64,000 nucleotides of DNA from Alysiella filiformis (lineage in GTDB: Bacteria; Pseudomonadota; Gammaproteobacteria; Burkholderiales; Neisseriaceae), in the NCBI RefSeq assembly GCF_014054525.1, contig NZ_CP059564.1, positions 134,357-198,356 of the forward strand, given 5' to 3'. Below the pieces are notes generated by a model that saw nothing but the letters and a program-made list of their open reading frames with translations, did no database searches and was not told the origin of the DNA. Below, piece by piece: positions 27,351 to 62,681 of the stretch (the stretch's first letter is position 1; each line of letters begins with the position of its first letter). The position numbers and the translations under genes were made by a program.

Positions 27351-27435
27351 GCCAAAATTATAACGACAAAATCATCACAACTTCAAGCTGTATGGTTTTT
27401 CAGGCAGCCTGAAAATCAGGCTTTCGCACCATAAA

Positions 27436-27882: not shown

Positions 27883-27911
27883 TCAATATCCATTTCAGGC
27901 TGCCTGAAAAA

Positions 27912-28382: not shown

Positions 28383-28398
28383 GATTTTCTCTTTTAAA

Positions 28399-28653
28399 TC
28401 AAATATTTTGTTGATTAGGTGGCAGGTGTTGCGACAGCCACATTTTAATTAAGGCTTGACGTGCAACCCCCAAATTTGCCGCTTCACGGTCTAAACTTTC
28501 CAGCATCCACAATGGAAAATCCACGTTTACGCGGCGTGTGGCGATTTTGTTTTGATGAACGCGTGTGGCTTGACTCAAATCCAAATATTCTAAAATATCT
28601 TCTTGATTGTCATCAAACTTTCGCTCAAAAACTTCGGTATCAATGGGTTTCAT
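28399..28653 (-). CDS. BrnA-like/CopG antitoxin
   Basis: This 84-residue protein has an acidic helical N terminus ([21 protein letters not shown]) and a ribbon-helix-helix domain [35 protein letters not shown] use ATG 28653 (MKPIDTEVF), which overlaps the preceding BrnT-like toxin by 14 nt, as in the module at 27 kb. The DNA-binding domain is CopG-like rather than the DUF4415 form. Confidence 0.82.
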
Positions 28654-28906
28654 ACAGCATTTTCTCCTTATCACGTGAACGGCGAACTGAAATTAAACGA
28701 ATTTTGCCATTGCGATGCGTGTAAATGGCTGACCAATGTTTTTCGCCAATGATGCCAATGGCAAGATGACGGATTTCAGGCTCTGTTTGAATGGGAATGC
28801 TCAATAATTGGGGGTCTTGCCACAAATATTGTGCGGTTTCAAAATCAATGCCGTGTTTGGTGTGATTGCTTTGGCTTTTGTTTGGGTCGTATTCAAATTC
28901 AAACAT
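28640..28906 (-). CDS. BrnT-like toxin, second copy
   Basis: This ~88-residue BrnT-family protein reads MFEFEYDPNKSQSNHTKHGIDFETAQYLWQD, then GEKHWSAIYTHRNGKIRLISVRRSRDKEK. It shares the toxin fold with the 27-kb copy but is divergent. An upstream ATG at 28939 is possible; I prefer 28906 because it matches the family N terminus. It forms a second toxin-antitoxin pair 1.3 kb from the first, with queF between. Confidence 0.87.
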   Translation of the reverse strand: MFEFEYDPNKSQSNHTKHGIDFETAQYLWQDPQLLSIPIQTEPEIRHLAIGIIGEKHWSAIYTHRNGKIRLISVRRSRDKEKMLYETH

Positions 28907-28992
28907 GTTAATTGCGCTTAAAATATACCTATTAAGCATATTTTAGCAATCATTTTGATGATGTCCAAATGTTTTTCAGGCTGCCTGAAAAT

Positions 28993-29595
28993 TCAAAATA
29001 ATTGATTTTGTTCAATATAATCTGCCACTTTTTCAGGCAGCCCATTTCGCCTGTTTTTGCCAGCCGCCCAATTTGCACGAATTTCGCTGGAACTGATGTC
29101 CCTGTTTTCCGCATTGAGCAAAATCAAATCGCCCGATTGCAACGCCGTGCCCAACCACGAATGCAATTCGCGCGGTGCTTGCGCCAAATTGCCGCCTGTT
29201 CGGTTGGCGACCACCATTTTCACTTGCCGAACAAGACTTTGCCAATTTTTCCAAGTGTGCAATTTCAGCAAACTGTCCATGCCCAGCAGCCAGTAAAATT
29301 GGGCATTGGGATAATATTGTTTGAAAATCTGAATGGTATCAATGGTATAAGTTGCCCCTTCGCGCACCACATCGCAATCGCTCACGGCAAATTGGGGGCT
29401 GCCTGAAATCGCCAATTCCACCATTTTCAAACGGTGTTCGGCGGGCAACAAATCGGTGTTTTTGTGATACGGCTCGCCAGCAGGCAGAAAAATCACGCAA
29501 TCCAAACCGCATTGTTGGGCAAATTTTTCGGCAATGTGCAAATGTCCATTGTGTATGGGGTTGAATGTACCGCCAAATAATCCTATTTTTTTCAT
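28993..29595 (-). CDS. nadD: Nicotinate-nucleotide adenylyltransferase
   Basis: This 200-residue nucleotidyltransferase makes deamido-NAD from nicotinate mononucleotide. The N-terminal GLFGGTFNPIHNGHLHIAE carries the HxGH motif, and DISSSEIRANWAAGK near the end is the ISSTxxR equivalent. I start at ATG 29595 (MKKIGLFGG), which leaves a 4-nt gap to dsbB upstream and suggests an operon. DUS at 28976-28990 and 29031-29042 flank its 3' end. Confidence 0.95.
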   Translation of the reverse strand: MKKIGLFGGTFNPIHNGHLHIAEKFAQQCGLDCVIFLPAGEPYHKNTDLLPAEHRLKMVELAISGSPQFAVSDCDVVREGATYTIDTIQIFKQYYPNAQFYWLLGMDSLLKLHTWKNWQSLVRQVKMVVANRTGGNLAQAPRELHSWLGTALQSGDLILLNAENRDISSSEIRANWAAGKNRRNGLPEKVADYIEQNQLF

Positions 29596-29599
29596 AAAC

Positions 29600-30127
29600 T
29601 TAATCATCAAAACGGGCAATGTATTTTTTCGGTTCAGGCAGGCTGCTTATCCACAAAGACGCAAGCAACAAAATCAACACCGCACTGAAAAATGCCGCAC
29701 TCCACCACGCCAAAGGCACGCCCAACACTTTGTACACTTCGCCACACGCGCCTGTGCCGCGAATAATCGGCTCGTACCACTCAAAAAATGGTGCGCCACG
29801 CAAGCGGAATGTCCACGGTGCGCCACAACTGGGCTGCTCCATAAGTGGCAGACTTTGCAGATGAATTTGTTTCGCAGCAATGTACAAACCGAAAACGGCT
29901 GGCGCGGCAATCGCCACAAAAGCGGCAATTTTGCGGTTAATCACTTCCAAATCCAACAACAACATCGCCCATGCCAGCACCGCCACGCCAATCAATGCCA
30001 CGCGCTGCTGAATGCACATCACGCAAGGGTTCATGCCAAACGCATATTGCGCGGTAAACGATGCCGCCACGCCCAAAGCCGATACCCATAAAACCGTCCA
30101 AACCGCCAAGCGGTATTCTTTTAACAT
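29600..30127 (-). CDS. dsbB: Disulfide bond formation protein DsbB
   Basis: This 175-residue inner-membrane protein with four helices reoxidises DsbA and passes electrons to quinone. Both redox pairs are present: Cys35-Val-Met-Cys38 and Cys101/Cys128 (QPSCGAPW, GTGACGEV). LQSLPLMEQPSCGAPWTF matches neisserial DsbB. The start at ATG 30127 (MLKEYRLAVW) fits the homologues; upstream ATGs at 30142 and 30160 are less likely. nadD follows almost directly. Confidence 0.92.
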   Translation of the reverse strand: MLKEYRLAVWTVLWVSALGVAASFTAQYAFGMNPCVMCIQQRVALIGVAVLAWAMLLLDLEVINRKIAAFVAIAAPAVFGLYIAAKQIHLQSLPLMEQPSCGAPWTFRLRGAPFFEWYEPIIRGTGACGEVYKVLGVPLAWWSAAFFSAVLILLLASLWISSLPEPKKYIARFDD

Positions 30128-39297: not shown

Positions 39298-39382
39298 GCG
39301 GACGTGGCGAAATTGGTAGACGCACTGGATTTAGGTTCCAGCGCCGCAAGGCGTGAGAGTTCGAGTCTCTCTGTCCGCACCA
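39298..39382 (+). tRNA. tRNA-Leu (anticodon TAG)
   Basis: The 85-nt sequence starts GCGGACG and ends TGTCCGCACCA, giving a closed acceptor stem with encoded CCA. The anticodon arm CTGGA-TTTAGGT-TCCAG has TAG in the loop, and the long variable arm (GCCGCAAGGCGTG) and TTCGAGT T-loop are typical of leucine tRNAs. Its 3' end is the probable integration site of the adjoining element. Confidence 0.95.
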
Positions 39383-39388
39383 AACTAC

Positions 39389-39420
39389 AAAAAAGCAACC
39401 TTTTAGGTTGCTTTTTTTTC
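39389..39420 (+). terminator. Terminator after tRNA-Leu
   Basis: AAAAGCAACC TTTTA GGTTGCTTTTTTTT is a strong intrinsic terminator. Confidence 0.9.
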
Positions 39421-39548
39421 GTTTCAATTCGTTTCATACAATCAACCAAATCATTTATTTCAAACACTTTTTTCAAAAATCACAACAAACAATCACTTAA
39501 AAATCGTCTCATATTGTGCTTTTTCGTTTCATTGTATCAACCATTTTG

Positions 39549-39569
39549 TGTTGGTAAAATTGTTGGTAA
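39549..39569 (+). repeat. Left copy of a 21-bp direct repeat flanking the element
   Basis: TGTTGGTAAAATTGTTGGTAA is repeated with one mismatch at 47542-47562. It is itself a tandem of GTTGGTAA. An inverted TTACCAACA follows at 39581-39589. This looks like an array of integrase arm-binding sites. Confidence 0.7.
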
Positions 39570-39599
39570 CGATTTCATTTTTACCAACAGAGCCGAAAA

Positions 39600-40784
39600 A
39601 TGCCACTCAACGACCGCCAAATCAAAAACGCCAAACCCAGCGACAAAATTCAAAAACTTTCAGACGGCGGCGGCTTGTGCCTTGTGGTACACCCAAACGG
39701 CGGCAAGTATTAGCAACTGAATTTCCGATTTGACGGCAAACAAAAAACGCTTTCTATTGGCACTTATCCCACCATTGCATTAACGCAAGCCCGCGCCGCC
39801 CGCGAAACCGCCAAGCAACAAATCGCACAAGGCATAGACCCCGCCGCCGCCAAACAGCAACAAAAAACCGAAAGAGCCGCCGCCCGCGCAAACACCTTTC
39901 ACGCCATCGCCGCGCAATGGCACGAAAAACAAACGCCCAAATGGAAACCCAATCATGCCGCCCGCGTATGGCATGGTTTGGAAATGGACGTTTTCCCGCA
40001 AATTGGCGGCTTGCCGATTGATAAAATTGGTGTGCAAGATGTGAAAGCGGTGTTAGACAAAATCGCAGAGCGCGGCGCATTGGTTACGGCAAAGAAAATC
40101 AGGGAATGGATAGGCGCGGTATTCAAATACGCCGCCATGTTGGAATTGACCGACCGCAACCCCGCCGCCGTGTTGTCAGGCTATTTGGCTCAAAATGAAA
40201 CGGTTAATATGCCCGCTTTGCCGCGTGAAAGGCTGCCTGAATTTTATCGCCGCCTATTGTCCACACCAGCCGAAAGGCAAAACATCATAGGTATTTTATT
40301 GATTATGCTGGTGTTTGTACGCAATCATGAATTGCGCGGCGGCTTGTGGTGTGAGATTGATTTTCAGGCTGCCACTTGGACAATCCCCGCCGAAAGAATG
40401 AAACGCCCGCGCCCGCATATCATTCCGCTTTCAGATTGGGCGGTTGAATTGTTGCGCGAATTGCACGGCATAACGGGGCATACGCCGTTTATGTTTCCCA
40501 GTTCAAGCAGCAAAAGCGGCTACATCAGCGAAAACACATTAGGCAAAATCATCAACACAATGGGCTACAAAGGCATTGCCACGCCGCACGGATTTAGGAG
40601 CTTGGCAAGCAGCATTTTGAATGAGCAGGGCTTTAATCCCGACAGCATAGAGCGACAATTAGCCCATATTGATGAAAACAAAGTACGCGCTGCCTACAAT
40701 CGCGCCGAATATTGGAATGAGCGCGTAGAATTTATGCAATGGTACAGCGATTATTTGAAAAGCCACTACCCGACCGAAAATTAA
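39600..40784 (+). pseudogene. Tyrosine integrase with an in-frame TAG
   Basis: The frame from ATG 39600 encodes a ~394-residue P4-type tyrosine recombinase. The N-terminal part is MPLNDRQIKNAKPSDK..LSDGGGLCLVVHPNGGKY, and the catalytic core includes NHELRGGLW (Arg), TPHGFRSLASS (Arg), RQLAHIDENKVRAAYNRAEY (His and nucleophile Tyr). Codon 38 at 39711-39713 is TAG where homologues have Trp (TGG), so one base change breaks it. The downstream frame from 39978 lacks the arm-binding domain. Excision is probably disabled unless TAG is suppressed or the base is miscalled. It faces away from tRNA-Leu, beside its likely att site. Confidence 0.88.
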
Positions 40785-40793
40785 ACCAACACC

Positions 40794-40822
40794 AGCCCGC
40801 CCATTCAATAGGTGGGCTTTTT
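40794..40822 (+). terminator. Terminator after integrase
   Basis: AGCCCGCC CATTCAATA GGTGGGCT TTTT forms an 8-bp stem with one G-T pair. The interval 40823-41529 that follows has one DUS and A/T-rich DNA; I see no gene or RNA in it that I can support. Confidence 0.8.
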
Positions 40823-41529
40823 CACGTTTTCAGGCAGCCTGAATGCCAAAAAATGCGCGTTTTTGATGATTTTTTAATCAAATCATCATCATAATTTGAC
40901 AGAAAAGTGATAGAAATTGCGCGAAAAAAATCAAAATGGCGCGGCGGCTGGTGTGGATTAACGTGTTTTTCCATGCACGGCAAAACACGGCAATACACCG
41001 CGCCCAATTCCCCGAAAAATGATTACCACCCCCACTCAAACAAAAAAACCACAAAAAACATCAAAAAAAATACTCAAATAATTTAATCATTTGAAAAACA
41101 GCATGACGATAAAAAAGACCAACTTTACTACTTTGAGCATTAAAGAACATGGAAAAATTGAGACATTTTTTCAGTATTTTTCGTTCAAAAATCTCATAAG
41201 TTGGGTACTTAAACGGTACATCTCAAATCATTTCCACAAGTAACCTAAAACCCCTGTTTACTTACTGTTTACATTCTTGTATCTGCCCGTTTTCAGGTTC
41301 AGGGAAACATCTTTTTCATTTTTTCTCTAAATTTAATCCATGCAGTTTTTGACCGACTTTTGACCAGCATAGAAAAGTGTCAAAAATCCCGCGAAAAAAT
41401 GACAAAACGAATGCAAAATTATCCTTTCCTTTCATGGCTTTACAATCGTGAAAAATTTTTGTAATTTTTAAAAAAGCAAGAACGCACACCAGCGTATTTT
41501 TTTATCAACCAAACCCAAAGGACAAGAAA

Positions 41530-41754
41530 ATGAAAGACACCATTTTACGCATTGATGACACCGCCAAGAAATGCGGCTTTTCACGCAGCATGATTTGGGC
41601 GAAATTGAACCCAAACGACCGCCGCCATGATGACACATTCCCGCGCCCCATTCGTTTATCGGCGCGGGCAATTGGTTGGCTGGAAAGCGAAATTGATTTG
41701 TGGATTGCCACACGCGCCGAAAACAACCGCTTAAACACGGAAAACCGCGCATGA
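41530..41754 (+). CDS. AlpA-family regulator / excisionase-like protein
   Basis: This 74-residue protein has the AlpA layout: ILRIDDTAKKCGFSRSMIWAKL (winged helix-turn-helix), then FPRPIRLSARAIGWLESEIDLWI. AlpA proteins in satellite prophages activate integrase and excision or control early genes. GGACAAGAAA before the ATG is a weak ribosome binding site. The last base triplet overlaps the next ORF (ATGA), so the two are coupled. Confidence 0.88.
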   Translation: MKDTILRIDDTAKKCGFSRSMIWAKLNPNDRRHDDTFPRPIRLSARAIGWLESEIDLWIATRAENNRLNTENRA

Positions 41755-41981
41755 ACCCTGTTTTTGATGATTTTCAGGCAGCTTGCGATTGGGTGGACGA
41801 CCACACCAACCCCGAAAATGCGGGCGTGTTTGTGATTGAACAGACCGCCCCGCAAAGGTGGCAAGTCGTGGCAATGGCAGACACGCATAACAACCCCAAA
41901 GGGTGCATAACAACCTTTCCCGCGCAATGCCAGCCCCTAAAAATGGCTTTCAGGCTGCCTGAAACCACGCAAAAATCGTGA
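41751..41981 (+). CDS. Small satellite protein with embedded iterons
   Basis: This 76-residue protein (MNPVFDDFQAACDWVDDHTNPE...) starts within the alpA stop as ATGA. It has a mixed alpha/beta look with VFVIEQTAPQRWQVVAM in the middle and ends with RLPETTQKS, which is encoded by a DUS. I do not recognise the family. The gene contains two copies of ATAACAACC, the inverse of the downstream iterons. Confidence 0.6.
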   Translation: MNPVFDDFQAACDWVDDHTNPENAGVFVIEQTAPQRWQVVAMADTHNNPKGCITTFPAQCQPLKMAFRLPETTQKS

Positions 41982-42290
41982 ATTTGATAAAAATCAATCG
42001 CTTAATTTTTTTGACAAAATGCAATCGCGTATTTTGTTAAAAATAGGTTGTTATGGTTGTTATGCGTAAAAAAATCCATTAAAAACATTAAATTAAGCAG
42101 CCCGATAGGTTGTTATGTTGGTTGATATGTGGTTGTTATGGTTGTTATATTTTTAAAATCAAATACTTACAAATATTCATAGCAACCAAAAACGGCTTAT
42201 AACAACCTATTTTCAGCAAGGTTGTTATGACTATTTCATTTTAAAACAATGAATTAAGTCGCTCATAACAACCTAACAACCATAACAACC
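41887..42290. other. Iteron array, candidate replication origin of the element
   Basis: The 9-mer GGTTGTTAT occurs at 42046, 42055, 42108, 42131, 42140 and 42220. Its reverse complement ATAACAACC occurs at 41887, 41907, 42199, 42265 and 42282, giving eleven exact copies, plus near copies at 42120 and 42274. Some are in direct tandem pairs, and the DNA between is A/T-rich. Such clustered short repeats upstream of a primase gene are the usual form of a satellite or plasmid origin. The initiator is not identified. Confidence 0.75.
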
Positions 42291-42589
42291 ACCTTTTGCA
42301 TATATATACACTTTTTTCAGGCACATTTTTCAGGCTGCCTGAAAACAGAAAAACGGCGGCGCAACACCCCAAATCGCAACCATGCCCCGCCATTGCACCC
42401 AAACGCGCCCAAAACGCCATTTATGCCCGCGCATGATGTGGCACACCACCCACACAGTAAATCGCCTACAAACGCCAATTTAAGCCATTGGCAGCGATTG
42501 CCCCAAAAAACACTTGACGAACCCAACAACAGGGCGCAAAATAACCGCATTGCTTTCAATCAAGCAATCAGGTTTAGCAGCCTGAAAAC

Positions 42590-42800
42590 GTGGCAAACCA
42601 GCCGCCCCAGCGTTCCCGCGTGTCTTGCACACCAGAGAACCACAAGCGGCATTTTCATGGTTTGCATTTCCCCTTGTCTTGCCTTTTTTATGGGAAACAG
42701 GGGGCGGGGAGCCTTATGGCTCGCTGGTACACGTTTCCAGTCTGCTAACCCGCCCTTTTGTTTCCCGCCTTGCGTTTAGCAGCGTAAGCGGGTTGAATAA
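42590..42800 (+). ncRNA. Possible C4-type regulatory RNA region
   Basis: The segment is G/C-rich and structured, with the phrases CGCGTGTCTTGCACACCAGA, GAGCCTTATGGCTCGCTGG and CTGCTAACCCGCC..GCGTAAGCGGGTT forming stems. Such leaders precede early operons of P4-like satellites and phages, where a C4/CI RNA causes premature termination. Identification rests on position and remembered resemblance. Two short ORFs here (42393-42779, 42625-42810) look like chance reading of this RNA. The flanking 41982-42589 is the iteron array and A/T-rich DNA. Confidence 0.35.
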
Positions 42801-42824
42801 CCTAACGTGAAAAGGCAAATTCTC

Positions 42825-43049
42825 ATGTCTCAATCCCCTATTTTTCCCCGCCCGCGCCAATGCGCCACACACCGCCGCGCCATTGGCACATTAACCGTGC
42901 AAACTGTACGCCGCTTTTCCTGCCTGAAAAAAGCCAGCGCATACACCGAATATTGCGCCCGCAATTACCAACATGACCGTTTTGTCATTCAAGGCGGCAT
43001 GTGTGGTGTTTGGCTGGTGTGCCGTGTGATTGGCGGGGGTGTGTCATGA
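42825..43049 (+). CDS. Small satellite protein
   Basis: This 74-residue basic protein (MSQSPIFPRPRQCATHRRAIG...) has AAGG 9 nt before the ATG. It contains TVQTVRRFSCLKKASAYTEYCARNY and ends in a Gly/Val-rich VWLVCRVIGGGVS. I do not recognise it, but similarly placed small cysteine-containing proteins are common after the leader RNA in satellites. Its stop overlaps the next start as ATGA. Confidence 0.6.
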   Translation: MSQSPIFPRPRQCATHRRAIGTLTVQTVRRFSCLKKASAYTEYCARNYQHDRFVIQGGMCGVWLVCRVIGGGVS

Positions 43050-43417
43050 CTGAACGCAATCCCCCATTCAAAAGCCATTCATGCGGATTAGGCACATTTT
43101 TGGATATTGCCAACCGCGCCATTTCCGAAAAATGCAGCAATGGCGAATACACCGCCGCCGATATTCAAGTATTGCAAGACAATGTTTTTATGAGCCTTTA
43201 CCATTTGGGCAACATCGCCGAAATGTTGGGCATGGAACGCATTGATTACATGGACGACCCCTACAACACCAGCCATACGGCGTTAATGGTTTTCGGGCGG
43301 GCGGTGCAAGAAATGGCGTACACGCTGGACACAATCACACCCCATATCCGTAAAGCCCATATTGCCGCCGCACCCATTGTGGCAGATGACACTTTCCCGC
43401 CGCCCAATGGCTGCTAA
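43046..43417 (+). CDS. Satellite hypothetical protein, helical
   Basis: This 123-residue protein starts at ATG 43046, overlapping the previous stop. It is predicted all-helical: TFLDIANRAISEKCSNGEYTAADIQVLQD, then MSLYHLGNIAEMLGMERIDYMD. There is no signal peptide or known motif. The operon position suggests a replication- or copy-control-associated product, but this is unproven. Confidence 0.6.
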   Translation: MTERNPPFKSHSCGLGTFLDIANRAISEKCSNGEYTAADIQVLQDNVFMSLYHLGNIAEMLGMERIDYMDDPYNTSHTALMVFGRAVQEMAYTLDTITPHIRKAHIAAAPIVADDTFPPPNGC

Positions 43418-43563
43418 TTCGTAATCCCCCCTTTCCACAATTTGAGTAAAGCCGCTTTGCTGCCACACCAGCAAGGCAGCTTTCTTGCAAGCTGAATATT
43501 TCACAAGTATTTGATTTTAAATGATTTGTAATTTTCAGACTGCCTGAAACAAGGATTGAAACC

Positions 43564-43860
43564 ATGACGTTACCCCACCAAAAACCCACCCACTACACCC
43601 CACCATTGAATGCGCCCGCCGCCGCTTTGGGCGTGAGCGTGAAAGAACTGAAAGCCGCCTTGCAATTTTTGGGCTGGATTGAACGCGGTATTTTCCCATT
43701 TCACGCCACGCCAGCCGCCGTGAATTTGGATTTGGCTTATCAGGAATGTGGCGGCAATGAATACGGCTGCCAAGTATCACGCATTCACATCACGCACAAA
43801 GGCATGGCACAACTGGCAGCTTATTTCAGGGGCGATTTATTGCCAGTCATTAAACAGTAA
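43564..43860 (+). CDS. Satellite hypothetical protein
   Basis: This 98-residue protein includes PAAALGVSVKELKAALQFLGWIERG, which looks like a winged-helix DNA-binding unit, and ends RIHITHKGMAQLAAYFRGDLLP. A phage-antirepressor KilAC-like C-terminal helix-turn-helix would look like this, so it may be a small DNA-binding regulator. CAAGGATTGAAACC before the ATG gives AAGGA. A DUS-like TTCAGACTGCCTGAA lies just upstream. Confidence 0.6.
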   Translation: MTLPHQKPTHYTPPLNAPAAALGVSVKELKAALQFLGWIERGIFPFHATPAAVNLDLAYQECGGNEYGCQVSRIHITHKGMAQLAAYFRGDLLPVIKQ

Positions 43861-44056
43861 ACAAAATAAAAGGAGCAGGGCGGCGGCGTGTTGCTTTGCC
43901 TGAAAATCCCCTTTCAGGCTGCCTAAACCGCCCTACCCTATCGCCTAACCCTATCCCCCCAAAGTGTTTTTGATTGAAAAGGGCTGTTTTGTCAGCAGGG
44001 CAGCAGTAATAAGTACTCTATTTTTAAGCAGCCATAAAACCACAGGAAAATTCAAA

Positions 44057-44320
44057 ATGTTCACAAATAAACGTTCTACCCCAATTCGCCGCAGCACTTC
44101 GCCATACGCACAAGGGCGGCGTGAACCCAGTCCGACCATGCTGGCAAAAATCGTGTCTTTGCTGCCACCTTTGCCGCGTGTTTGGCGACAAAGCAGCCGC
44201 GTTATGGTGCAAAACGATGTTCACACCAGCCAAGAGCCGACACGTTACGGTGTAAAAATCACGCACCGCCACACGCAAACCGTCATTCACGAAACCCATA
44301 CCGAAATCAACAAGGTATAA
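44057..44320 (+). CDS. Small basic satellite protein
   Basis: This 87-residue protein (MFTNKRSTPIRRSTSPYAQGRREPSP...) is Arg/Pro-rich at the N terminus and His/Thr-rich at the end (KITHRHTQTVIHETHTE). CAGGAAAATTC supplies the ribosome binding site. I recognise no domain. It is followed 5 nt later by the next ORF. Confidence 0.5.
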   Translation: MFTNKRSTPIRRSTSPYAQGRREPSPTMLAKIVSLLPPLPRVWRQSSRVMVQNDVHTSQEPTRYGVKITHRHTQTVIHETHTEINKV

Positions 44321-44325
44321 AAATC

Positions 44326-44655
44326 ATGGAAATCAACTCTTTGCATATTTTACTGGCATTTATCATTGGGCTGTTTTGGGGCGGCATTTGGCTTGGTTTG
44401 GCTTGTCGCCACGAATTGCAACAATGGCGCAAATACGCCGCCGAATGTGAAAACGAGATTGCCTATTTGGAAAGGCAGCTTGATGTGGAGCAACGCATTT
44501 ATGCCCGCCTTGAAACGCAATTAGCCGCCAAATTTTCACGCGCTGAAACATTCAGGCAGCCTGAAAACAATGATGATGAAAACACATCAGCCGAAACCGT
44601 TATCACACAAGACCAAGCCAACCCCGCCCGCTATATTTTTACCACACAGGATTAA
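44326..44655 (+). CDS. Small membrane protein with coiled coil
   Basis: This 109-residue protein has one N-terminal membrane helix (LHILLAFIIGLFWGGIWLGLA). A coiled coil (AAECENEIAYLERQLDVEQRI) follows, then a hydrophilic tail that includes FRQPENNDDE encoded by a DUS. The topology resembles phage Rz/spanin-like or septum-targeted small proteins; its function is unknown. It lies 4 nt before the primase. Confidence 0.6.
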   Translation: MEINSLHILLAFIIGLFWGGIWLGLACRHELQQWRKYAAECENEIAYLERQLDVEQRIYARLETQLAAKFSRAETFRQPENNDDENTSAETVITQDQANPARYIFTTQD

Positions 44656-44659
44656 GACC

Positions 44660-45712
44660 ATGTTTCAACACACTTTGCAGGATATTAAAGCCGCCGCGCA
44701 ATGCAATTGGCAAGCCATTCACGCCGCGCTTGGTATGCCCGCCCATTTGACCGATAAACGCAAACATCAACCCTGCCCCGCGTGTGGCGGCAAAGACCGT
44801 TACCGCTACACCGATTTTCAGGGCAATGGCGGCTTTATTTGCAGCCAATGCACACCGCAAGGCGGAAGTGGCTTTGATTTGCTTATGCTGGTGTTTGGCT
44901 TGAATTTCAATGAGAGCGTGAAAGAAGTTGCCGCCGTATTGGGCATGAATAACCATGCACCCATGCCACACCAGCCGCGCCAAACCGCCACATCATCGCC
45001 CAAACCCACCATTGACCGCTTATCCGAATTGCAGCAACGTTTTCAGGCTGCCCATGCGGTAACACGCAATGGCGCGATTATGGCGTATTTGGCGGGGCGT
45101 GGTTTGCCTGAATGGGCATTGCCCGCCGCCGCCATTCGGGAAACGGTAGCAGATTATTGGGCGCAAGATGTACGGACTAATCAGCCTTTGCACATGGGGC
45201 GGTTTGCTTGCATGGTGGCAGCAATCACATTGCCCAATGGCGAATTACAGGGCTTGCACCAAACCTATTTACAACAAGACGGCAACACATGGCGCAAACT
45301 CAATATCACGCACCCGCAAACCAATGAGCCATTGCCCGCCAAAAAGATGTTTTCCCGCTTTTCAGGCAGCCTGAAAGGGGCGGCGGTACACATGGAACGG
45401 GCAGACGATAAAGGGCGGCTGTTAATCGCAGAAGGTGTGGAAACCACATTAGCCGCCCGCGCCCTATTTGGTTTGCCCACCGTAGCCGCATTGAGTGCCA
45501 ATGGTATGCGTGGCTTTGAAATTCCTGCTGGTGTACAAGAAATCTACATTTGCGCCGACAACGACCACAACAGAGCAGGTTTTCGGGCGGCACATGATTT
45601 GGCAGTACGCGCCATTAAACAGGGCTTAACCGCCCACATTTGGCAGCCTGAAACGGCGGGATTAGACGCACTAGACGAATACCACCGCCGCCATTCACAG
45701 CCACAATCATAA
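44660..45712 (+). CDS. Satellite primase with zinc finger and TOPRIM domain
   Basis: This 350-residue protein has a CHC2-like zinc ribbon (Cys39, Cys42, Cys61, Cys64: CPACGGKDRYRY..FICSQC), a primase-helicase linker, and a TOPRIM domain with LLIAEGVETTLAARALFG and EIYICADNDHNRAG. This matches P4 alpha-type and prophage DNA primases that initiate replication of the element. It works with the downstream DUF927 ATPase, 16 nt away. A DUS is read in frame as FSGSLKG. Confidence 0.9.
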   Translation: MFQHTLQDIKAAAQCNWQAIHAALGMPAHLTDKRKHQPCPACGGKDRYRYTDFQGNGGFICSQCTPQGGSGFDLLMLVFGLNFNESVKEVAAVLGMNNHAPMPHQPRQTATSSPKPTIDRLSELQQRFQAAHAVTRNGAIMAYLAGRGLPEWALPAAAIRETVADYWAQDVRTNQPLHMGRFACMVAAITLPNGELQGLHQTYLQQDGNTWRKLNITHPQTNEPLPAKKMFSRFSGSLKGAAVHMERADDKGRLLIAEGVETTLAARALFGLPTVAALSANGMRGFEIPAGVQEIYICADNDHNRAGFRAAHDLAVRAIKQGLTAHIWQPETAGLDALDEYHRRHSQPQS

Positions 45713-45728
45713 ACAAAAAGGAAAAATC

Positions 45729-47474
45729 ATGGAAAAACAATCACAAAACAATCCATTGAACGAATTTGAACAAGCCAGCATTCAGCCCTATTATGATTGC
45801 ACCCGCAACGGTGTTTACCACATCAGCATTGCCACAGACAGCAACGGCAATGTAAGCGAAAAGCCGCCTGTTCGTTTATCCGACCCAATCCGCATTATTG
45901 GGCGCGGTACAGACACGGCGGGCAATCATTATCGCGTAATTGCATGGCAAGACAGCTTTTCACACCAAACCCAAACAGCCGCCCTGAGAATGGCGGATAT
46001 TGGCACCAATACAGGTTTTCAAAGTTTGCAACAACGCGGCATTACCGTTCACGCAGGGCGGCGCAAACGTGAATTGCTTGCCGATTATTTGCAAACACAA
46101 GGCGACACCAGCCCCTTTTATATTGTGGATAAAGCAGGTTGGCATGGTACAGATTACATTTTACCAAGCGGAAAAATCATTACAAAACAAAACAATAAAA
46201 ACAAAAACACCCCACAAACCCTATACAATGGCGACACCAGTCAAGCCGCCGCCTTTTGCGTTTCAGGCAGCCTGAAAGAATGGCAAGCGCAAGTTAGCCG
46301 ATATGCGGCGGGCAACAGCCGTTTGTGTTTGGCAATCGGTACAGCATTAGCCGCGCCCTTGTTGGCAATATTGGGTGAACAAAACGGCGGTTTCCACATT
46401 TACGGCAAAAGTTCAGACGGCAAAACCACCGCCGCCAAAGTGGGCTTATCGGTTTGGGGGCAGCCTGAAAAGATTAAAAACGCATGGAATGGTACAGCTT
46501 TGGGTTTTGCCAATGCCGCGCTTGCCCGCAACGACAATTTCATGGTGTTGGACGAAATCGCCGAATGTGAGCCGCATATCATTGCCAAAACCACCTATTC
46601 CGTTATCAACGGCAAATCCAAATTGCAAGGCGCAAAAGACGGCGGCAACCGCCAACAATCCGAATGGCGCATTTTGATTTTTTCAACAGGCGAATACGAT
46701 TTAAAAAATTACATTGAACGCGGCGGCATGAAGTGGGAGGCGGGGCAATCGGTACGTTTGCCCAGTTTGCCCGCAATGGTACGCTATGGGGTGTACGACC
46801 ATTTACACGGTTTTCACAATGGCGCGGCATTGTCCGACCACCTACTACACACCATAAATCAGCAACACGGCGCGGCGGGCGCGGCATGGATTGAAAAACT
46901 GCTTACTTTGGACGTGGAACGCATACAGGCTGCCCGCAATGCGTTTATGCAAATTTTGCCTGAATTGAATGGGCAAGCCTTGCGTGTGGCACGGCGTTTT
47001 GCGATTGTGGCGGCGGCTTTGGAATTGGCAAATGAGATTACAGGGCTTGCGGCTGGTGTGGGTATGGCGGGCATAAAGCAATGTTTTGATGACTGGTTTT
47101 CAATCAATGGCAATATGGATTATGAAACCCGCGCCATTTTAGACCAAACAGAAAACTTTATGCAGTTGTATGGCGAAAGCAGCCGTTTTGTAGAATGGAA
47201 TAATCCTTTTGTTAATCACGACCACGCGGGCTATTTCCGCGAAATAAACGAGAAAGCCAAGCGTAAAGAGTTTTGGATAGTGCCTAGCGTGTTTGAAGAT
47301 GAAGTTTTACGCCATACCGATACGCAACAAGGCTGCTTGGTTTTGCATAAAGTAGGCTGGTTGCAAAAGCCCAAAAGCGGCAAAGGCTGGAAACAACAAC
47401 GCTTTCAAAAAGGGCGGTATTATGTGTTATTGGGTATGGAGTTGCCAAATATTGAAAGCCTATTTGATGATTAA
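45729..47474 (+). CDS. DUF927-domain ATPase (putative replicative helicase)
   Basis: This 581-residue protein contains DUF927: an N-terminal DNA-binding-like part, then Walker A HIYGKSSDGKTTAAK near residues 220-235 and Walker B NFMVLDEIAEC. An arginine-rich sensor region follows (EWRILIFSTGEYDLKNYIERGG). Such proteins follow the primase in satellite elements and replace a hexameric helicase. The C-terminal ~130 residues resemble a winged domain. A DUS is read as VSGSLKE and a second as GQPEKI. It is the last gene of the element's operon. Confidence 0.88.
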   Translation: MEKQSQNNPLNEFEQASIQPYYDCTRNGVYHISIATDSNGNVSEKPPVRLSDPIRIIGRGTDTAGNHYRVIAWQDSFSHQTQTAALRMADIGTNTGFQSLQQRGITVHAGRRKRELLADYLQTQGDTSPFYIVDKAGWHGTDYILPSGKIITKQNNKNKNTPQTLYNGDTSQAAAFCVSGSLKEWQAQVSRYAAGNSRLCLAIGTALAAPLLAILGEQNGGFHIYGKSSDGKTTAAKVGLSVWGQPEKIKNAWNGTALGFANAALARNDNFMVLDEIAECEPHIIAKTTYSVINGKSKLQGAKDGGNRQQSEWRILIFSTGEYDLKNYIERGGMKWEAGQSVRLPSLPAMVRYGVYDHLHGFHNGAALSDHLLHTINQQHGAAGAAWIEKLLTLDVERIQAARNAFMQILPELNGQALRVARRFAIVAAALELANEITGLAAGVGMAGIKQCFDDWFSINGNMDYETRAILDQTENFMQLYGESSRFVEWNNPFVNHDHAGYFREINEKAKRKEFWIVPSVFEDEVLRHTDTQQGCLVLHKVGWLQKPKSGKGWKQQRFQKGRYYVLLGMELPNIESLFDD

Positions 47475-47541
47475 CAGCGTGGCTGGTGTATCGTATAATT
47501 CACGCAACACCAGCCAAAAAAATTGCATGACTTTTGCATAA

Positions 47542-47562
47542 TGTTGGTAAATTTGTTGGTAA
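47542..47562 (+). repeat. Right copy of the 21-bp direct repeat
   Basis: TGTTGGTAAATTTGTTGGTAA matches 39549-39569 with one mismatch. About 60 bp beyond it, GTGTCTCTCTGGCGCC (47621 on) shares GTCTCTCTG with the tRNA-Leu 3' end, a possible but weak right attachment core. Confidence 0.6.
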
Positions 47563-47783
47563 AAAGAAAAATTTTATTAAATTTTCTATTTAAAATAAAA
47601 TGTTTAGTTACTTAATTTGTGTCTCTCTGGCGCCTGAATAAGGCTGTTTTTTACGTCTATTTTTGTCTAATCGTGTCTAATTATTTTTATGCTTTCAATC
47701 ACTTAAATTCAAGTAAATGGTATTTTATCGCCTATCCCTGTCTAAAATCGCCTAATGCAACCTTATTGAATTAACCCAATGCA

Positions 47784-56172: not shown

Positions 56173-56709
56173 TTGAACAACGATAAAACACATCATTTTG
56201 AGCAAATCGGTTTGACTTCGCCACACGTTCAGGCTGCCAAACGCATTTATTATCAAGCATTTGGGCATAGTAAACCTTTGCCCTTTTGGGTTTTGCAACT
56301 CAATGCCTTGCGTCCGACTGTGCAATTTTGGGCTTTGCTGGAAAACGATGAATTGCGCGGCTGGCTATATCTGCTGGTTGGGAAAGACATTGTTTTTATT
56401 TACTATTGTGCCATAGCGCAACCATATCGCTCACGCGGTTATGGCGGATTGATGATGGATTGGCTCAAACAGCGTTTCCCCAAACACCGATTGGCATTGA
56501 ATTTGCCCCTGCCCGATGGGCATGAAACGCAACGTGAGCGGTTTTACGCGCGACACGGTTTTCGCCATGCGGATTTTGTTTATACTGAACGCGGTTTGCG
56601 GTCTGATGTGCTGGTGTGTCAGGGCGATTTGACGGCGGCGGAATATGTGGCTTTGCTGCGACCGTTTGCGTTTTACTGCTACCCCATTCGCACTTTGCCG
56701 CGCGTGTAA
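56173..56709 (+). CDS. GNAT acetyltransferase, TTG start
   Basis: This 178-residue protein has the acetyl-CoA motif CAIAQPYRSRGYGGLMMDWL (RSRGYG) followed by RERFYARHGFRHADFVY. The first half matches a ~180-residue GNAT group. No ATG is available before the domain, so TTG 56173 is the likely start; no clear ribosome binding site is seen. The fold is certain but the substrate is unknown. An inverted DUS pair follows at 56716-56757, between it and gyrB. Confidence 0.72.
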   Translation: MNNDKTHHFEQIGLTSPHVQAAKRIYYQAFGHSKPLPFWVLQLNALRPTVQFWALLENDELRGWLYLLVGKDIVFIYYCAIAQPYRSRGYGGLMMDWLKQRFPKHRLALNLPLPDGHETQRERFYARHGFRHADFVYTERGLRSDVLVCQGDLTAAEYVALLRPFAFYCYPIRTLPRV

Positions 56710-56715
56710 AAAACA

Positions 56716-56757
56716 TTTCAGGCAGCCTGAAAATTAAATGCAGGCTGCCTGAAACCT
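56716..56757. terminator. DUS pair between convergent genes
   Basis: TTTCAGGCAGCCTGAAA and GCAGGCTGCCTGAAA are near-palindromic DUS, 11 nt apart, that can form a shared terminator for the acetyltransferase and gyrB. Confidence 0.55.
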
Positions 56758-56765
56758 TTTTCCCA

Positions 56766-59180
<2,415 letters not shown>

Positions 59181-59240
59181 TTACTTTGTTGATTAAATTG
59201 AAAATTCGTTTGCTTATTTTGGTATTCAGGCAGCCTGCAA

Positions 59241-59672
59241 TTATTTGCAACGATAAAATGTTTTAGCTTGCGGAGAACTATCTAATTTTTTGACAATTAA
59301 TGTATTTCTGTCTTTCAAAATGAATTCAAATGGCTCGCGCAACTGATAATTTCCCACCACCATTGTACCAGCGATTTTAAGAGGCGTTCGCAGCGTAAAT
59401 TTTGGGCGACTGTGTTCGCTTGCGCCTTCAATATATTGTTGATGTACTGATTGTTTTTCCACCGTTAAATAGATTTCATCATCGGCAAAAACTGCAACGC
59501 CCGATTGACAATATTGGCGTATTAAAGCAGACGTTATCGCTTGCTCACGCCCTTTTTCCCATTGCTAATAAAGCCATTCGCCTTGAAATGTACGCGGAAT
59601 ATCTTGTGCGGCTGCTTGAAATGTTACGCTGCAAAGCATGGTAAATAGGGTAGTTTTTATTTTGTTATTCAT
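59241..59672 (-). pseudogene. Secreted hypothetical protein with an in-frame TAG
   Basis: From ATG 59672, with AAGGA upstream, the frame encodes a signal peptide (MNNKIKTTLFTMLCSVTFQA, then AA) and a short mature protein. It reads DIPRTFQGEWLY, then TAG (59565-59567 on this strand), then QWEKGREQAITSALIRQYC..., and ends TLIVKKLDSSPQAKTFYRCK at 59241. The frame is otherwise clean for 143 codons, so a single base change breaks it. I do not recognise the domain. The stop context TAT TAG CAA is the same as in the integrase. Confidence 0.75.
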
Positions 59673-59699
59673 TAGAATCCTTTTCAGGCTGCCTGAAAA

Positions 59700-59987
59700 C
59701 TAATTTCTTGGCAAAAACTGATACATGCCATTGATTAAAAGTGCAAAAATAATCATAGCAATCATGCAAGTCCATCGTTGTTTTTCTGATAATTTCAAAT
59801 TGGCAAACGCATAAACTGCAATCGTTAAAAATACGGCTGTATTGCCGACGGTTACCCAAGTTTTAAATGCGCTGCTGTACGACTTACTCCACAAGTTAAC
59901 AGTCAAAATCAACCAAACGGCTAAACTTGTCCAGCCCATGATTTTTTGTTCTTTGGGCGTGAGATTTCTCAATGGTTTGCGCGACAT
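59700..59987 (-). CDS. Three-helix small membrane protein, family member 1
   Basis: This 95-residue protein has a short basic N terminus (MSRKPLRNLTPKEQKIMGW), about three membrane helices, and the motif FANLKLSEKQR before the last helix, and it ends QFLPRN. The three upstream genes share the same pattern. I start at ATG 59987; the frame is open further upstream through a DUS. The family is unrecognised and the location is the inner membrane. A DUS lies in each gap between the paralogues. Confidence 0.7.
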   Translation of the reverse strand: MSRKPLRNLTPKEQKIMGWTSLAVWLILTVNLWSKSYSSAFKTWVTVGNTAVFLTIAVYAFANLKLSEKQRWTCMIAMIIFALLINGMYQFLPRN

Positions 59988-60045
59988 GATGTTTTCTTTC
60001 TGTTGTAGGTTGGTTTTTAAGCCAACATTTTCAGGCTGCCTGAAA

Positions 60046-60360
60046 CTAATTTTTCGGTATCCATACCAAAATAAATCCCAAAAGCGAGGCAATAAACAAA
60101 TTGGCATTGTGCCAACGCTGACGTTGTTTATCGGATAATTTGTGGTTGGTGGCTGCGTACATGGCGGTACTCACGCTAATACTGATGACCGCAAATACCC
60201 AAATGCTTTTGGCAAATATGCCCAAACCCGATGTCCAAACCGCCAGCGAAACAAACAAGCCCAGCGCGATTGCCGATATCAACAAGGATTTTTGTCGTTC
60301 GGGCGTGAGTGGTTCAACTTTATTTTGATTGATGATTTTGTTGCGTAATTTTTTTAACAT
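60046..60360 (-). CDS. Three-helix small membrane protein, family member 2
   Basis: This 104-residue paralogue has an N-terminal KKLRNKIINQNKVEPLTPERQKS and membrane helices around residues 28-46, 52-70 and 85-101. The shared motif is ATNHKLSDKQRQRW and the end is VWIPKN. The leader before LTPERQK is longer than in member 1. The reading frame is intact. No characterised homologue comes to mind. Confidence 0.7.
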   Translation of the reverse strand: MLKKLRNKIINQNKVEPLTPERQKSLLISAIALGLFVSLAVWTSGLGIFAKSIWVFAVISISVSTAMYAATNHKLSDKQRQRWHNANLFIASLLGFILVWIPKN

Positions 60361-60402
60361 GATTGTTTTGCCTTTCTTTCAGGCTGCCTGAAAATGACAA
60401 AT

Positions 60403-60717
60403 TTAATTTTTGGGGATAATTTGGATAAAAACATTGCCCAATATTGCCAAAATCACGCCGCCCATCAACATCAATCGGCGTTGTTTTTCGGATAATTTGT
60501 GATTGGCAAATGCAAAAATCGCCACATTGGCAAAAAATGCCACATTCAAAAATATCGCCGTCAGGGTAAATTGCCAACTGTATGTTTTACTTAATGTTAT
60601 CACACACATCAATACGCCCAATACCATACTCCCAAAGCCAAAACATTTTCTTTGTATCGGGCTTAACGCATGGGAGTTTTCAGGCTGGCTGAACAGTTTT
60701 TCTTTGATTTTTTTCAT
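60403..60717 (-). CDS. Three-helix small membrane protein, family member 3
   Basis: This 104-residue paralogue starts MKKIKEKLFSQPENSHALSP; the SQPEN residues come from a DUS variant. The second helix is followed by FANHKLSEKQRRLML and the end is QIIPKN. It is most like members 1 and 2 around the KLSEKQR loop, while its membrane helices are clearly diverged. Confidence 0.7.
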   Translation of the reverse strand: MKKIKEKLFSQPENSHALSPIQRKCFGFGSMVLGVLMCVITLSKTYSWQFTLTAIFLNVAFFANVAIFAFANHKLSEKQRRLMLMGGVILAILGNVFIQIIPKN

Positions 60718-60758
60718 ACCTTAAACCTTTCAGGCTGCCTGAAAATGGCAGCTCTTTT

Positions 60759-60825
60759 GTAGGGTGCGTATCACGCACCAAAAATTTCAAATCGTGGCAA
60801 ATTCGGTGCGTGGGACGCACCCTAC
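60759..60825. repeat. 67-bp GTAGGGTGC hairpin, copy 1
   Basis: GTAGGGTGCGTATCACGCACC and GGTGCGTGGGACGCACCCTAC bound the element, with AAAAATTTCAAATCGTGGCA between. It lies at the 3' end of member 4 and is nearly identical to 61705-61771. Confidence 0.85.
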
Positions 60826-60828
60826 GCA

Positions 60829-61110
60829 CTAATTTCGCGGTAAAAATATTTGCCCCAAAGTACCAAGTATCGATATCGCCAATATCAAGCCCAGCAAATA
60901 TTGCCATTGTTTTGCGGATAATCGGTTTTTATGCTCGGCAAAATACAACGCCAAACCCACGCTCAAATAAAATCCGCCATTCAAACCCGACATGATGACG
61001 GCAAAATACCAACGCTCATAACGATAAAACGGCGCAATCAGCAAAATCATCGCCAAAACAACATTGCCGTACATCAACCATTTTCTTTGTTTGTGGCTTA
61101 AATTGAGCAT
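60829..61110 (-). CDS. Three-helix small membrane protein, family member 4
   Basis: This 93-residue, most divergent paralogue reads MLNLSHKQRKWLMYGNVVLA, with a central pair of helices. The motif is EHKNRLSAKQWQYL and the end QIFLPRN. It lacks the longer N-terminal leader of members 2 and 3. GGAAAAAAATC before the ATG is an acceptable ribosome binding site. It is first in transcription order, and all four may share one message. Confidence 0.7.
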   Translation of the reverse strand: MLNLSHKQRKWLMYGNVVLAMILLIAPFYRYERWYFAVIMSGLNGGFYLSVGLALYFAEHKNRLSAKQWQYLLGLILAISILGTLGQIFLPRN

Positions 61111-61148
61111 GATTTTTTTCCTTTCAGGCTGCCTGAAAATACCGCATT

Positions 61149-61661
61149 TTATTTTTTGGGTGTTGTCCAGTCGTGGCGAAATTCATAGCCATATTTGGGC
61201 GAATATTCATCGCGGAATATGCCGAAACACACGGGATTTTTGCCTTTGTTTGCCTCTTCGCCATAATCATCGGTGGCAATAACGCTTTGATAAGCCATTG
61301 CGACACCCCACACACACATTTGCGGTTCATTGACGCTGAATTGGATTTTGGCTTTTTTACCGTTTTCGTGGTCTTCAATCGTGTGAAAAAGTGGATAAAC
61401 CACGCCATTTCGCGTGTCTATTGCGGCATAAGCACGCGGTTCAACCTCCAACAAAATATAATGCCGATTGAAATTGGGTTTTTGATTTGCCAATGCACGG
61501 CGATATTGGGCTTTGTTTGAGCGGCTGCAATAATCTGTGTCGTTGGTCATGTCAAATTGGCAAGTCGCTACGCCTGTTAATTTGACCGTTTTTGCCATGA
61601 TGTTTGGGCTGAACATCATCATGGCTATCATGATAAATGGGTTAATCCATGCTGTTTTCAT
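61149..61661 (-). CDS. Secreted hypothetical protein
   Basis: I start at ATG 61661, giving the signal MKTAWINPFIMIAMMMFSPN followed by IMA. The mature part has ~147 residues. It contains VATCQFDMTNDTDYCSRSNKAQYRRALA and four cysteines in all, suggesting two disulfides in the periplasm, plus HYILLEVEPRAYAAIDTRNG. I do not recognise the family. The upstream frame (to 61799) is DUS and repeat DNA and not coding. It may be grouped with the small membrane proteins downstream. Confidence 0.65.
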   Translation of the reverse strand: MKTAWINPFIMIAMMMFSPNIMAKTVKLTGVATCQFDMTNDTDYCSRSNKAQYRRALANQKPNFNRHYILLEVEPRAYAAIDTRNGVVYPLFHTIEDHENGKKAKIQFSVNEPQMCVWGVAMAYQSVIATDDYGEEANKGKNPVCFGIFRDEYSPKYGYEFRHDWTTPKK

Positions 61662-61704
61662 GCTTGTTTTCCTTTTCAGGCTGCCTGAAAATCGTGGCTC
61701 TTTT

Positions 61705-61771
61705 GTAGGGTGCGTATCACGCACCAAAAATTTCAAATCGTGGCAAATTCGGTGCGTGGTACGCACCCTAC
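61705..61771. repeat. 67-bp GTAGGGTGC hairpin, copy 2
   Basis: It matches 60759-60825 except for one base in the right arm (GGTACGC for GGGACGC). Both copies are preceded by the same GTGGCTCTTTT/GGCAGCTCTTTT-like phrase and a DUS. Confidence 0.85.
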
Positions 61772-61795
61772 GCGGTTTCAGGCTGCCTGAAAACA

Positions 61796-62080
61796 TCAAT
61801 TTGTTTTTTGCAAAAAATAAGCATCCAACACTTCAACCGCCAGCGTCAAATCCAGACCCCATTGTTGGCGAATGGCTTTAATATCCGCAATGCGTTCGCC
61901 CGTTAAGTTTTGTTCCAACCACATTTTGACTTCGGGATTACCGACCAATAACGCCCCAACAGGCGAAAGCGGTTGCGCGCCATTTCGGGTTTTGAAATAC
62001 ACGGTTAAAAGATGCCAAAAAGCGTAAATCGGGATAAGGCACACCAATACGGTTTTGAAGGTTTCCCAAAATTCATTCAT
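61796..62080 (-). CDS. Small membrane-anchored hypothetical protein
   Basis: This 94-residue protein has one N-terminal membrane helix (FKTVLVCLIPIYAFWHLLTV) and a soluble part, NPEVKMWLEQNLTGERIADIKAIRQQWGL. I do not recognise it. AAGGAAAAAAC before the ATG is a good ribosome binding site. A DUS lies on each side. Confidence 0.62.
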   Translation of the reverse strand: MNEFWETFKTVLVCLIPIYAFWHLLTVYFKTRNGAQPLSPVGALLVGNPEVKMWLEQNLTGERIADIKAIRQQWGLDLTLAVEVLDAYFLQKTN

Positions 62081-62183: not shown

Positions 62184-62681
62184 TCAAATGGGTAAATAAC
62201 CTTGAAATTCAATCGCTTTTGCTTGACCATTTGGATTGGGGCGCAAATGGACAAACCAATCGTGAAATTGATTGAGCTGCAAAATATTGTCCACATCTTT
62301 CAAATTGTCTTTGTGCTGCTGATTGGCGTGCGGCAACAGCGTGGCAAGGGCTTGGCGTTTCGCGTCTTGCTCATCGCTTGCCACAAACAAATCAAAGGCG
62401 TGCAATTCCGCCAAATCGCCCTCTTGATACGCCCCCACATTCACAAAAAACAATTTTTCAGGCAATTCATGGGCTTGATTTTGCAAGACAATATCGTAGC
62501 CAGCCACCCAGTTGATTTCGCGCCAACCGTCTATGTGCAAACGCGCATCGGTGTGCGCCCAAATGCGTTTCAAATCGGCAAAAGCCGCTTGGGGCGTGGG
62601 CGCAACGGCAAATTGCACATCGTGCATTTCCAAATTGGCGTGTGGCATTTGTATGCCCAAATAAAATTGGTAGAGTTTCAT
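62184..62681 (-). CDS. DUF1543-like protein
   Basis: This 165-residue cytoplasmic protein starts MKLYQFYLGIQMPHANLEMHD. It contains EKLFFVNVGAYQEGDLAELHAFDLFVASDEQDAKRQA (in parts), which fits DUF1543, a family with a duplicated KLFFVxxGGY unit. Function is unknown. CAAAGGAAAATCAAC before the ATG gives AAAGGA. Confidence 0.75.
   Translation of the reverse strand: MKLYQFYLGIQMPHANLEMHDVQFAVAPTPQAAFADLKRIWAHTDARLHIDGWREINWVAGYDIVLQNQAHELPEKLFFVNVGAYQEGDLAELHAFDLFVASDEQDAKRQALATLLPHANQQHKDNLKDVDNILQLNQFHDWFVHLRPNPNGQAKAIEFQGYLPI

What the first reader, a model, noticed from the sequence alone, without database searches (positions are those of the whole stretch)
59700..61110. Tandem array of four paralogous three-helix membrane proteins
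Genes at 59700, 60046, 60403 and 60829 share the plan LTP/LSP..QRK, two helices, (N)HKLSxKQR, one helix, and a final (I/L)P(R/K)N, while the helices have diverged. Each is separated by a DUS, which could promote exchange by transformation. The neighbours are secreted or membrane-anchored proteins of unknown function, one broken by a stop. I know no system with this layout; diversifying immunity or surface-stress proteins are possible readings.
Basis: partly seen in the sequence, partly recalled or inferred. Interest (0 to 1): 0.7.

Follow-up and report, generated by a model that had tools for sequence, protein, structure and literature searches.

The report
Tandem membrane proteins beside orphan immunity gene
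Four related small membrane proteins, found only in the mouth bacterium Alysiella, sit in a row next to a secreted protein whose relatives directly follow cell-wall-cutting toxins of type VI secretion in other bacteria, so the row may be a swappable set of shields against attack by neighbouring bacteria; the shield role of the secreted protein is well supported, that of the four membrane proteins is inferred.

Summary
In detail: four minus-strand genes upstream of gyrB encode true paralogues (95, 104, 104, 93 aa), predicted to have three membrane helices, with the stated motifs. The genome is Alysiella, probably A. filiformis. The family was found only in Alysiella (4 copies here, 2 in A. crassa) and matches no family in Pfam, NCBIfam, PADLOC, PHROGs or the PDB. 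The new evidence is the neighbour S (61149-61661). Its relatives in Burkholderia glumae and Acinetobacter stand directly behind VgrG-linked type VI effectors that share one endolysin-like C-terminal domain. A B. glumae plasmid in which that tip was replaced keeps the S gene plus the last 28 residues of the old tip. S is therefore most likely an immunity protein, and an orphan here: the core type VI gene tssB was not found in either Alysiella genome. Best reading: a small orphan-immunity island, with the four membrane proteins as candidate immunity proteins against membrane-active toxins (inference). The block is 95-99% identical between the species against about 77% background, so it was probably exchanged recently. 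Gene content differs exactly at DNA uptake sequences, but having a DUS in every gap is ordinary in this genome.

The parts
60829..61110 (-). gene D, three-helix membrane protein, 93 aa; orthologue in A. crassa
   Evidence: dN 0.009, dS 0.032 to A. crassa
60403..60717 (-). gene C, three-helix membrane protein, 104 aa; absent from A. crassa
60046..60360 (-). gene B, three-helix membrane protein, 104 aa; orthologue in A. crassa
   Evidence: dN 0.03, dS 0.14
59700..59987 (-). gene A, three-helix membrane protein, 95 aa (start at 59987, not 60107); absent from A. crassa
61149..61661 (-). gene S, secreted 170-aa protein, orphan member of a type VI immunity-like family
   Evidence: relatives directly behind VgrG-linked effectors; signal-peptide-like N-terminus read from sequence
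59241..59672 (-). Z, gene of a secreted protein broken by an in-frame TAG (59565-59567); absent from A. crassa
59686..59697 (+). DUS (simDUS) between A and Z
60033..60044 (+). DUS between B and A; species breakpoint
60381..60392 (+). DUS between C and B; species breakpoint (loss or gain of C)
60732..60743 (+). DUS between D and C; species breakpoint (loss or gain of C)
61126..61137 (+). DUS between S and D
61780..61791 (+). DUS at the upstream end of the block shared with A. crassa; species breakpoint
60757..60827 (.). dispersed palindromic repeat between D and C
61703..61773 (.). second copy of the palindromic repeat, upstream of S

Best explanation
The stretch from S to A upstream of gyrB is a small orphan-immunity island. 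S is a periplasmic immunity protein of a family that neutralises an endolysin-like (peptidoglycan-cutting) toxin tip carried by VgrG-linked type VI effectors; in Alysiella no toxin and no type VI apparatus was found, so it would protect against attack by other bacteria. The four three-helix proteins are inner-membrane immunity proteins against membrane-active toxins delivered by neighbours: a shared frame (cytoplasmic LSxKQR loop, C-terminal PK/RN) with divergent helices that would meet different toxin variants. Genes are gained and lost as single units by recombination at the DNA uptake sequences between them, in DNA taken up from other Alysiella. Shown: paralogy, predicted fold, restriction to the genus, 4 versus 2 copies, breakpoints at DUS, anomalously low divergence, S homologues directly behind type VI effectors, no tssB. 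Inferred: that S protects and is periplasmic, and everything about the function of the four membrane proteins.
For: S relatives: B. glumae VgrG-effector-S-PAAR; a version with a replaced tip keeps S and 28 residues of the old tip; Acinetobacter VgrG-LysM effector with a 45% identical tip, again followed by an S-family gene; Moraxella tip followed by a weakly S-like protein; the tip matches an endolysin family. TssB absent from both Alysiella genomes with a working control. Array: tandem divergent membrane paralogues directly behind S, same strand; 4 versus 2 copies; DUS breakpoints; dS 0.03-0.14 against about 0.7-1.9 in most genes outside such blocks. Works-like precedent: TsaI arrays (PMC9484751), Sip4 and Sip6 membrane immunity proteins (PMC12669606, PMC6889166), S. 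Typhi immunity islet (PMC7400221).
Against: No member of the three-helix family has been seen beside a toxin gene; no library, sequence or fold match to any immunity family. The most conserved residues are predicted to face the cytoplasm, not an incoming toxin. Selection on B and D between species is purifying. Only two genomes carry the family. S-family proteins also occur without such a neighbour in the stretch read. Absence of VgrG was checked in only 1.4 Mb of Alysiella sequence.
Confidence: 0.47

Rival explanations
1. The four proteins form a lineage-specific membrane complex with an envelope or cell-shape role (for example hetero-oligomers that dock a common cytoplasmic partner through LSxKQR), unrelated to S, which merely lies beside them.
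For: Conservation sits in predicted cytoplasmic and C-terminal segments; purifying selection between species; genus-restricted, and Alysiella has an unusual longitudinal cell division (PMC9395523, abstract).
Against: Two of four copies are missing in A. crassa, so no fixed four-part complex; gene-by-gene gain or loss at DUS.
Confidence: 0.25
2. The locus is only a slot in which unrelated small genes collect between DUS, like the minimal mobile elements of Neisseria; the four paralogues share ancestry but no common function with S, and may be of little consequence.
For: Breakpoints at DUS here and elsewhere; neighbours differ completely upstream of the block; one gene broken.
Against: Four related genes in a row is more than random collection gives; open frames and purifying selection argue for function.
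Confidence: 0.18
3. Immunity against secreted bacteriocins or phage-encoded killing rather than contact-delivered type VI toxins.
For: Small multi-helix membrane proteins serve as bacteriocin immunity proteins (established knowledge); copies are divergent and variable in number.
Against: No hit in PADLOC, PHROGs, phage or viral collections; the only functional clue nearby, S, points to type VI toxins.
Confidence: 0.1

Closest known systems
TsaI immunity arrays of Staphylococcus aureus (DUF443; PMC9484751)
   Same: tandem, divergent, copy-variable genes of multi-helix membrane proteins, a nearby toxin fragment or broken gene in some loci, little similarity among copies
   Different: TsaI has five helices and lies behind its toxin gene TspA; here three helices, no toxin gene, no sequence similarity, and DUS between the genes
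T6SS/CDI orphan immunity islet of Salmonella Typhi (PMC7400221)
   Same: orphan immunity genes without their toxins, restricted to one lineage
   Different: there mixed known families; here one known-by-context member (S) plus an unrecognised membrane family
Effector-immunity pairs of VgrG-linked peptidoglycan hydrolases in Burkholderia glumae plasmids and an Acinetobacter prophage (this work)
   Same: S is homologous to the small secreted protein directly behind the effector
   Different: in Alysiella S stands alone, with no effector, VgrG or PAAR at the locus
Sip4 and Sip6, membrane immunity proteins against type VI pore-forming effectors of Serratia (PMC12669606, PMC6889166)
   Same: small helical membrane proteins that guard against membrane-active toxins
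   Different: four and two helices, single copies beside the effector, no sequence relation known
Minimal mobile elements of Neisseria
   Same: chromosomal slot in which different gene cassettes are found in related genomes, spread by transformation
   Different: here a conserved gene (gyrB) bounds one side only, and breakpoints lie in DUS rather than in flanking conserved genes

Membership tests
type VI effector-immunity family (gene S) | homologous to a gene directly downstream of a VgrG-linked effector, with effector tip and gene linked across unrelated effector bodies | tested here: met
type VI effector-immunity family (gene S) | located where the toxin acts (periplasm for a cell-wall hydrolase) | tested here: inconclusive
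   signal-peptide-like N-terminus ending ...NIMA|KT read from the sequence; no dedicated predictor run
type VI effector-immunity family (gene S) | binds and neutralises the cognate toxin | not testable with these tools
   needs co-expression and binding assays
orphan immunity gene | host lacks the cognate toxin and secretion system | tested here: met
   no TssB/VipA in either Alysiella genome, control rings in E. coli; tip and VgrG absent from the 1.4 Mb in hand only
TsaI-like tandem membrane immunity array (works-like) | tandem divergent membrane paralogues with variable copy number | tested here: met
TsaI-like tandem membrane immunity array (works-like) | sequence membership of DUF443 or another known immunity family | tested here: not met
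   no such match in Pfam, NCBIfam or PADLOC
TsaI-like tandem membrane immunity array (works-like) | toxin gene beside the array in at least some genomes | tested here: not met
   no toxin gene at either Alysiella locus; only two genomes
minimal mobile element | alternative gene content between two conserved flanking genes in related genomes | tested here: inconclusive
   gyrB conserved on one side; the other side is wholly different in A. crassa; only two genomes

The most novel reading that the evidence does not exclude
The three-helix proteins are a new family of membrane immunity proteins, and Alysiella carries DUS-bounded, one-gene immunity cassettes that are reshuffled between species by natural transformation, a modular and swappable repertoire of shields against type VI or similar toxins of oral neighbours.
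Probability: 0.35. Interest if true: 0.7.

Novelty: new variant of a known kind. Interest (0 to 1): 0.5.

Why it matters
It ties an unnamed array to bacterial antagonism through a neighbour with a traceable toxin partner, and it gives a named pair to test (S against the endolysin-like tip of the B. glumae and Acinetobacter effectors). If the membrane array is also protective, it would show that DNA uptake sequences let competent bacteria without a type VI system trade single immunity genes as cassettes. The S family itself matches no Pfam or NCBIfam model, so naming it would help annotate 'hypothetical' genes.

Tried and rejected
Library matches for the four proteins are weak and inconsistent (Borrelia Orf-X E 1e-4 for C only, below its cut-off; TrkH, EbrB and others): composition of membrane helices, rejected. 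Fold searches gave nothing below E 0.3 (PDB) or 0.48 (viral). The tblastn hit of B on a Rhizobium plasmid (E 8e-3) lies inside a 462-aa transporter, rejected. Three weak hits in a sample of the class lie in reading frames of 274-421 aa, rejected as chance. Weak hits at E 0.007-0.5 in 91 relatives are mostly fragments of large proteins or broken frames; the one 108-aa frame checked shows no such gene. Internal duplication (LSPxQRK helix / LSEKQR helix) is supported in C alone (0 of 1000 shuffles), not in A or B; the test failed to split D. Structure of S: two sequences only, pLDDT 38, not used. Z is unrelated to the GH108 immunity candidate of B. glumae. The idea that DUS spacing is special to the array was rejected: about 60% of comparable gaps hold a DUS. 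The palindromic repeats beside C and S are dispersed genome repeats. No promoter excess in the region.

Full report
What is there. On the minus strand upstream of gyrB the window holds, in order of transcription, S (61149-61661, secreted), D (60829-61110), C (60403-60717), B (60046-60360), A (59700-59987) and Z (59241-59672, a secreted-protein gene with an in-frame TAG at 59565-59567), then gyrB. A-D are true paralogues: scores exceed all whole-sequence shuffles for every pair, z 6 to 26; under a stricter block-wise shuffle the weakest pairs (A-D, B-D) still reach only 1 in 1000. Eleven columns are invariant, at the start of helix 1, in the loop between helices 2 and 3 (LSxKQ) and at the C-terminus (PxN). 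AlphaFold2 gives three helices with fair confidence from six sequences (pLDDT 78). By the positive-inside rule (inference) the N-terminus and the LSxKQR loop are cytoplasmic and the C-terminus is periplasmic.

Where it comes from. The only other genome found with the family is Alysiella crassa DSM 2578 (G066, NZ_JQKH01000026.1), placed by the tool in the same genus as the window. The window genome (2.43 Mb, one contig) is therefore Alysiella, probably A. filiformis (inference). The DUS is AGGCTGCCTGAA, the simDUS dialect described in Simonsiella, here mostly as a dyad with kingDUS (PMC3630211). No homologue was found in the other 81 Neisseriaceae genomes, in a sample of the class (369 genomes including this one), in the viral contigs, or in plasmid and phage records. 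No Pfam, NCBIfam, PADLOC, PHROGs or PDB match is convincing. The family is genus-restricted as far as can be seen, with the caveat that membrane proteins of about 100 residues are hard to detect at distance.

Variation between the two species. A. crassa has S, D and B followed directly by gyrB; C, A and Z are missing. The three junctions fall on DUS: upstream of S both genomes share TTTTCAGGCAGCCTGAAACCGCG and everything before it differs; the C gene is bounded by two copies of CATTTTCAGGCAGCCTGAAA, of which A. crassa keeps one; and B is followed by the same DUS in both, after which A starts in one and the gyrB leader in the other. The block is 95-98.5% identical between the species while most orthologues outside such blocks are near 70-85%. 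Synonymous divergence is 0.03 (S, D), 0.14 (B) and 0.07 (gyrB), against about 0.7-1.9 in most genes outside such blocks. Recent exchange between the species is the simplest reading. The paralogues themselves are old (dN 0.65-0.93, dS mostly above 1), so the array changes by gain or loss of ready-made divergent genes, not by fresh duplication (inference). Over 464 kb, ends of high-identity blocks outside this locus also fall near DUS more often than intergenic position predicts (8 of 17 within 10 bp, 12% expected, P about 4e-4); alignment ends can be drawn to shared DUS, so this is suggestive only. A DUS in each gap of the array is not remarkable, since about 60% of such gaps have one.

The neighbour S. 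Within Neisseriaceae, S was found only in Alysiella, but tblastn against plasmids finds relatives in Burkholderia glumae (E 2e-8, 85% coverage). There they lie in VgrG - effector - S-like - PAAR clusters. In a second plasmid version the effector has the same first 750 residues or so but a GH108 muramidase tip, followed by another hypothetical gene and a PAAR gene; the S-like gene sits behind them, preceded by 28 residues that are 93% identical to the end of the first version's tip. That looks like tip replacement that left the old immunity gene behind. In an Acinetobacter prophage a VgrG-linked LysM effector with an unrelated body has a C-terminal domain 45% identical to the first B. glumae tip, and the next gene is again an S-family protein (pairwise E 2e-9 to S, 3e-10 to the B. 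glumae protein). In a Moraxella plasmid the same tip (31%) is followed by a 177-aa protein with a weak match in the same motif region. The tip matches an endolysin family, PHROG 90 (E 1e-9). The S family thus tracks one toxin domain across unrelated effector bodies, good evidence by association that it is the immunity partner. Some S-like proteins occur without such a neighbour in the stretch read, for example the C-terminal part of a lipoprotein in another genome, so not every member need be an immunity protein.

Alysiella lacks the partner. TssB/VipA is absent from both genomes while the control (E. coli) is found; VgrG and the tip were not found in the 1.4 Mb of Alysiella sequence in hand. 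S is therefore an orphan. Oral Neisseria commensals carry type VI systems with several VgrG-effector-immunity clusters, including LysM effectors, with DUS among them (PMC10210955), so plausible attackers share the niche (inference).

The four membrane proteins. Their assignment is inference. In favour of immunity: they lie directly behind S in the same orientation, are small multi-helix membrane proteins of the general sort that neutralise membrane-active toxins (Sip4, four helices, PMC12669606; Sip6, two helices, PMC6889166; TsaI, five helices in tandem variable arrays, PMC9484751), vary in number between species, have divergent helices on a constant frame, and travel in a recently exchanged block. 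Against: no member has been seen beside a toxin, selection between species is purifying, and the conserved residues are predicted to face the cytoplasm. I put the immunity reading of the array near 0.45 and that of S alone near 0.8. The main rivals are a lineage-specific membrane complex and a functionally mixed, DUS-bounded cassette slot.

Comparison with the known. As a kind, orphan immunity islands and tandem membrane-immunity arrays are known (PMC7400221, PMC9484751). What differs here is a genus-specific three-helix family, single-gene units bounded by DUS, and a host in which no type VI system was found. By sequence it is not a member of the TsaI (DUF443) family. I therefore call it a new variant of a known kind, conditional on the function.

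Limits. Two genomes only; the metagenome collection could not be searched; class-wide searches sampled 369 genomes; the genome was not scanned whole for VgrG, PAAR, CDI or Maf toxins.

Noticed in passing
60757-60827, 61703-61773; 22 half-sites genome-wide: A dispersed palindromic repeat (GTAGGGTGCGT...ACGCACC, about 70 bp) occurs at many places in the genome; two copies, with their DUS, form 96% identical 100-bp direct repeats around S and D. A. crassa has one copy half deleted.
   Followed up: partly
25977-29602, 39298-47635, 56194-61794: Blocks of 87-98% identity to A. crassa stand out from a background near 77%, with dS 0.03-0.4 against about 0.7-1.9: apparent mosaic of recent inter-species exchange.
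   Followed up: partly
window, and stretches L077-L096: Ends of high-identity blocks between the two Alysiella species fall on DUS more often than expected even outside this locus (8 of 17 intergenic ends within 10 bp, 12% expected). DUS may act as recombination joints for gene-sized indels.
   Followed up: partly
L117 and L118 (Burkholderia glumae plasmids NC_012725.2, NZ_CP021160.1): Type VI effector with the same 750-residue body but two different toxin tips; the replaced version keeps the end of the old tip and its putative immunity gene.
   Followed up: yes
59241-59672; L032:5801-6262: The broken secreted protein Z has a remote relative between accC and prmA in another Neisseriaceae genome (E 6e-4), sharing the pattern AQDIPxxFxGxW.
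   Followed up: partly
61796-62080; L022:3192-3677: Just upstream of the shared block the two species have different small genes of unknown function with membrane helices, at the same DUS junction.
   Followed up: no
62184-62681: DUF1543 protein (Pfam E 4e-27) of unknown function near the array.
   Followed up: no
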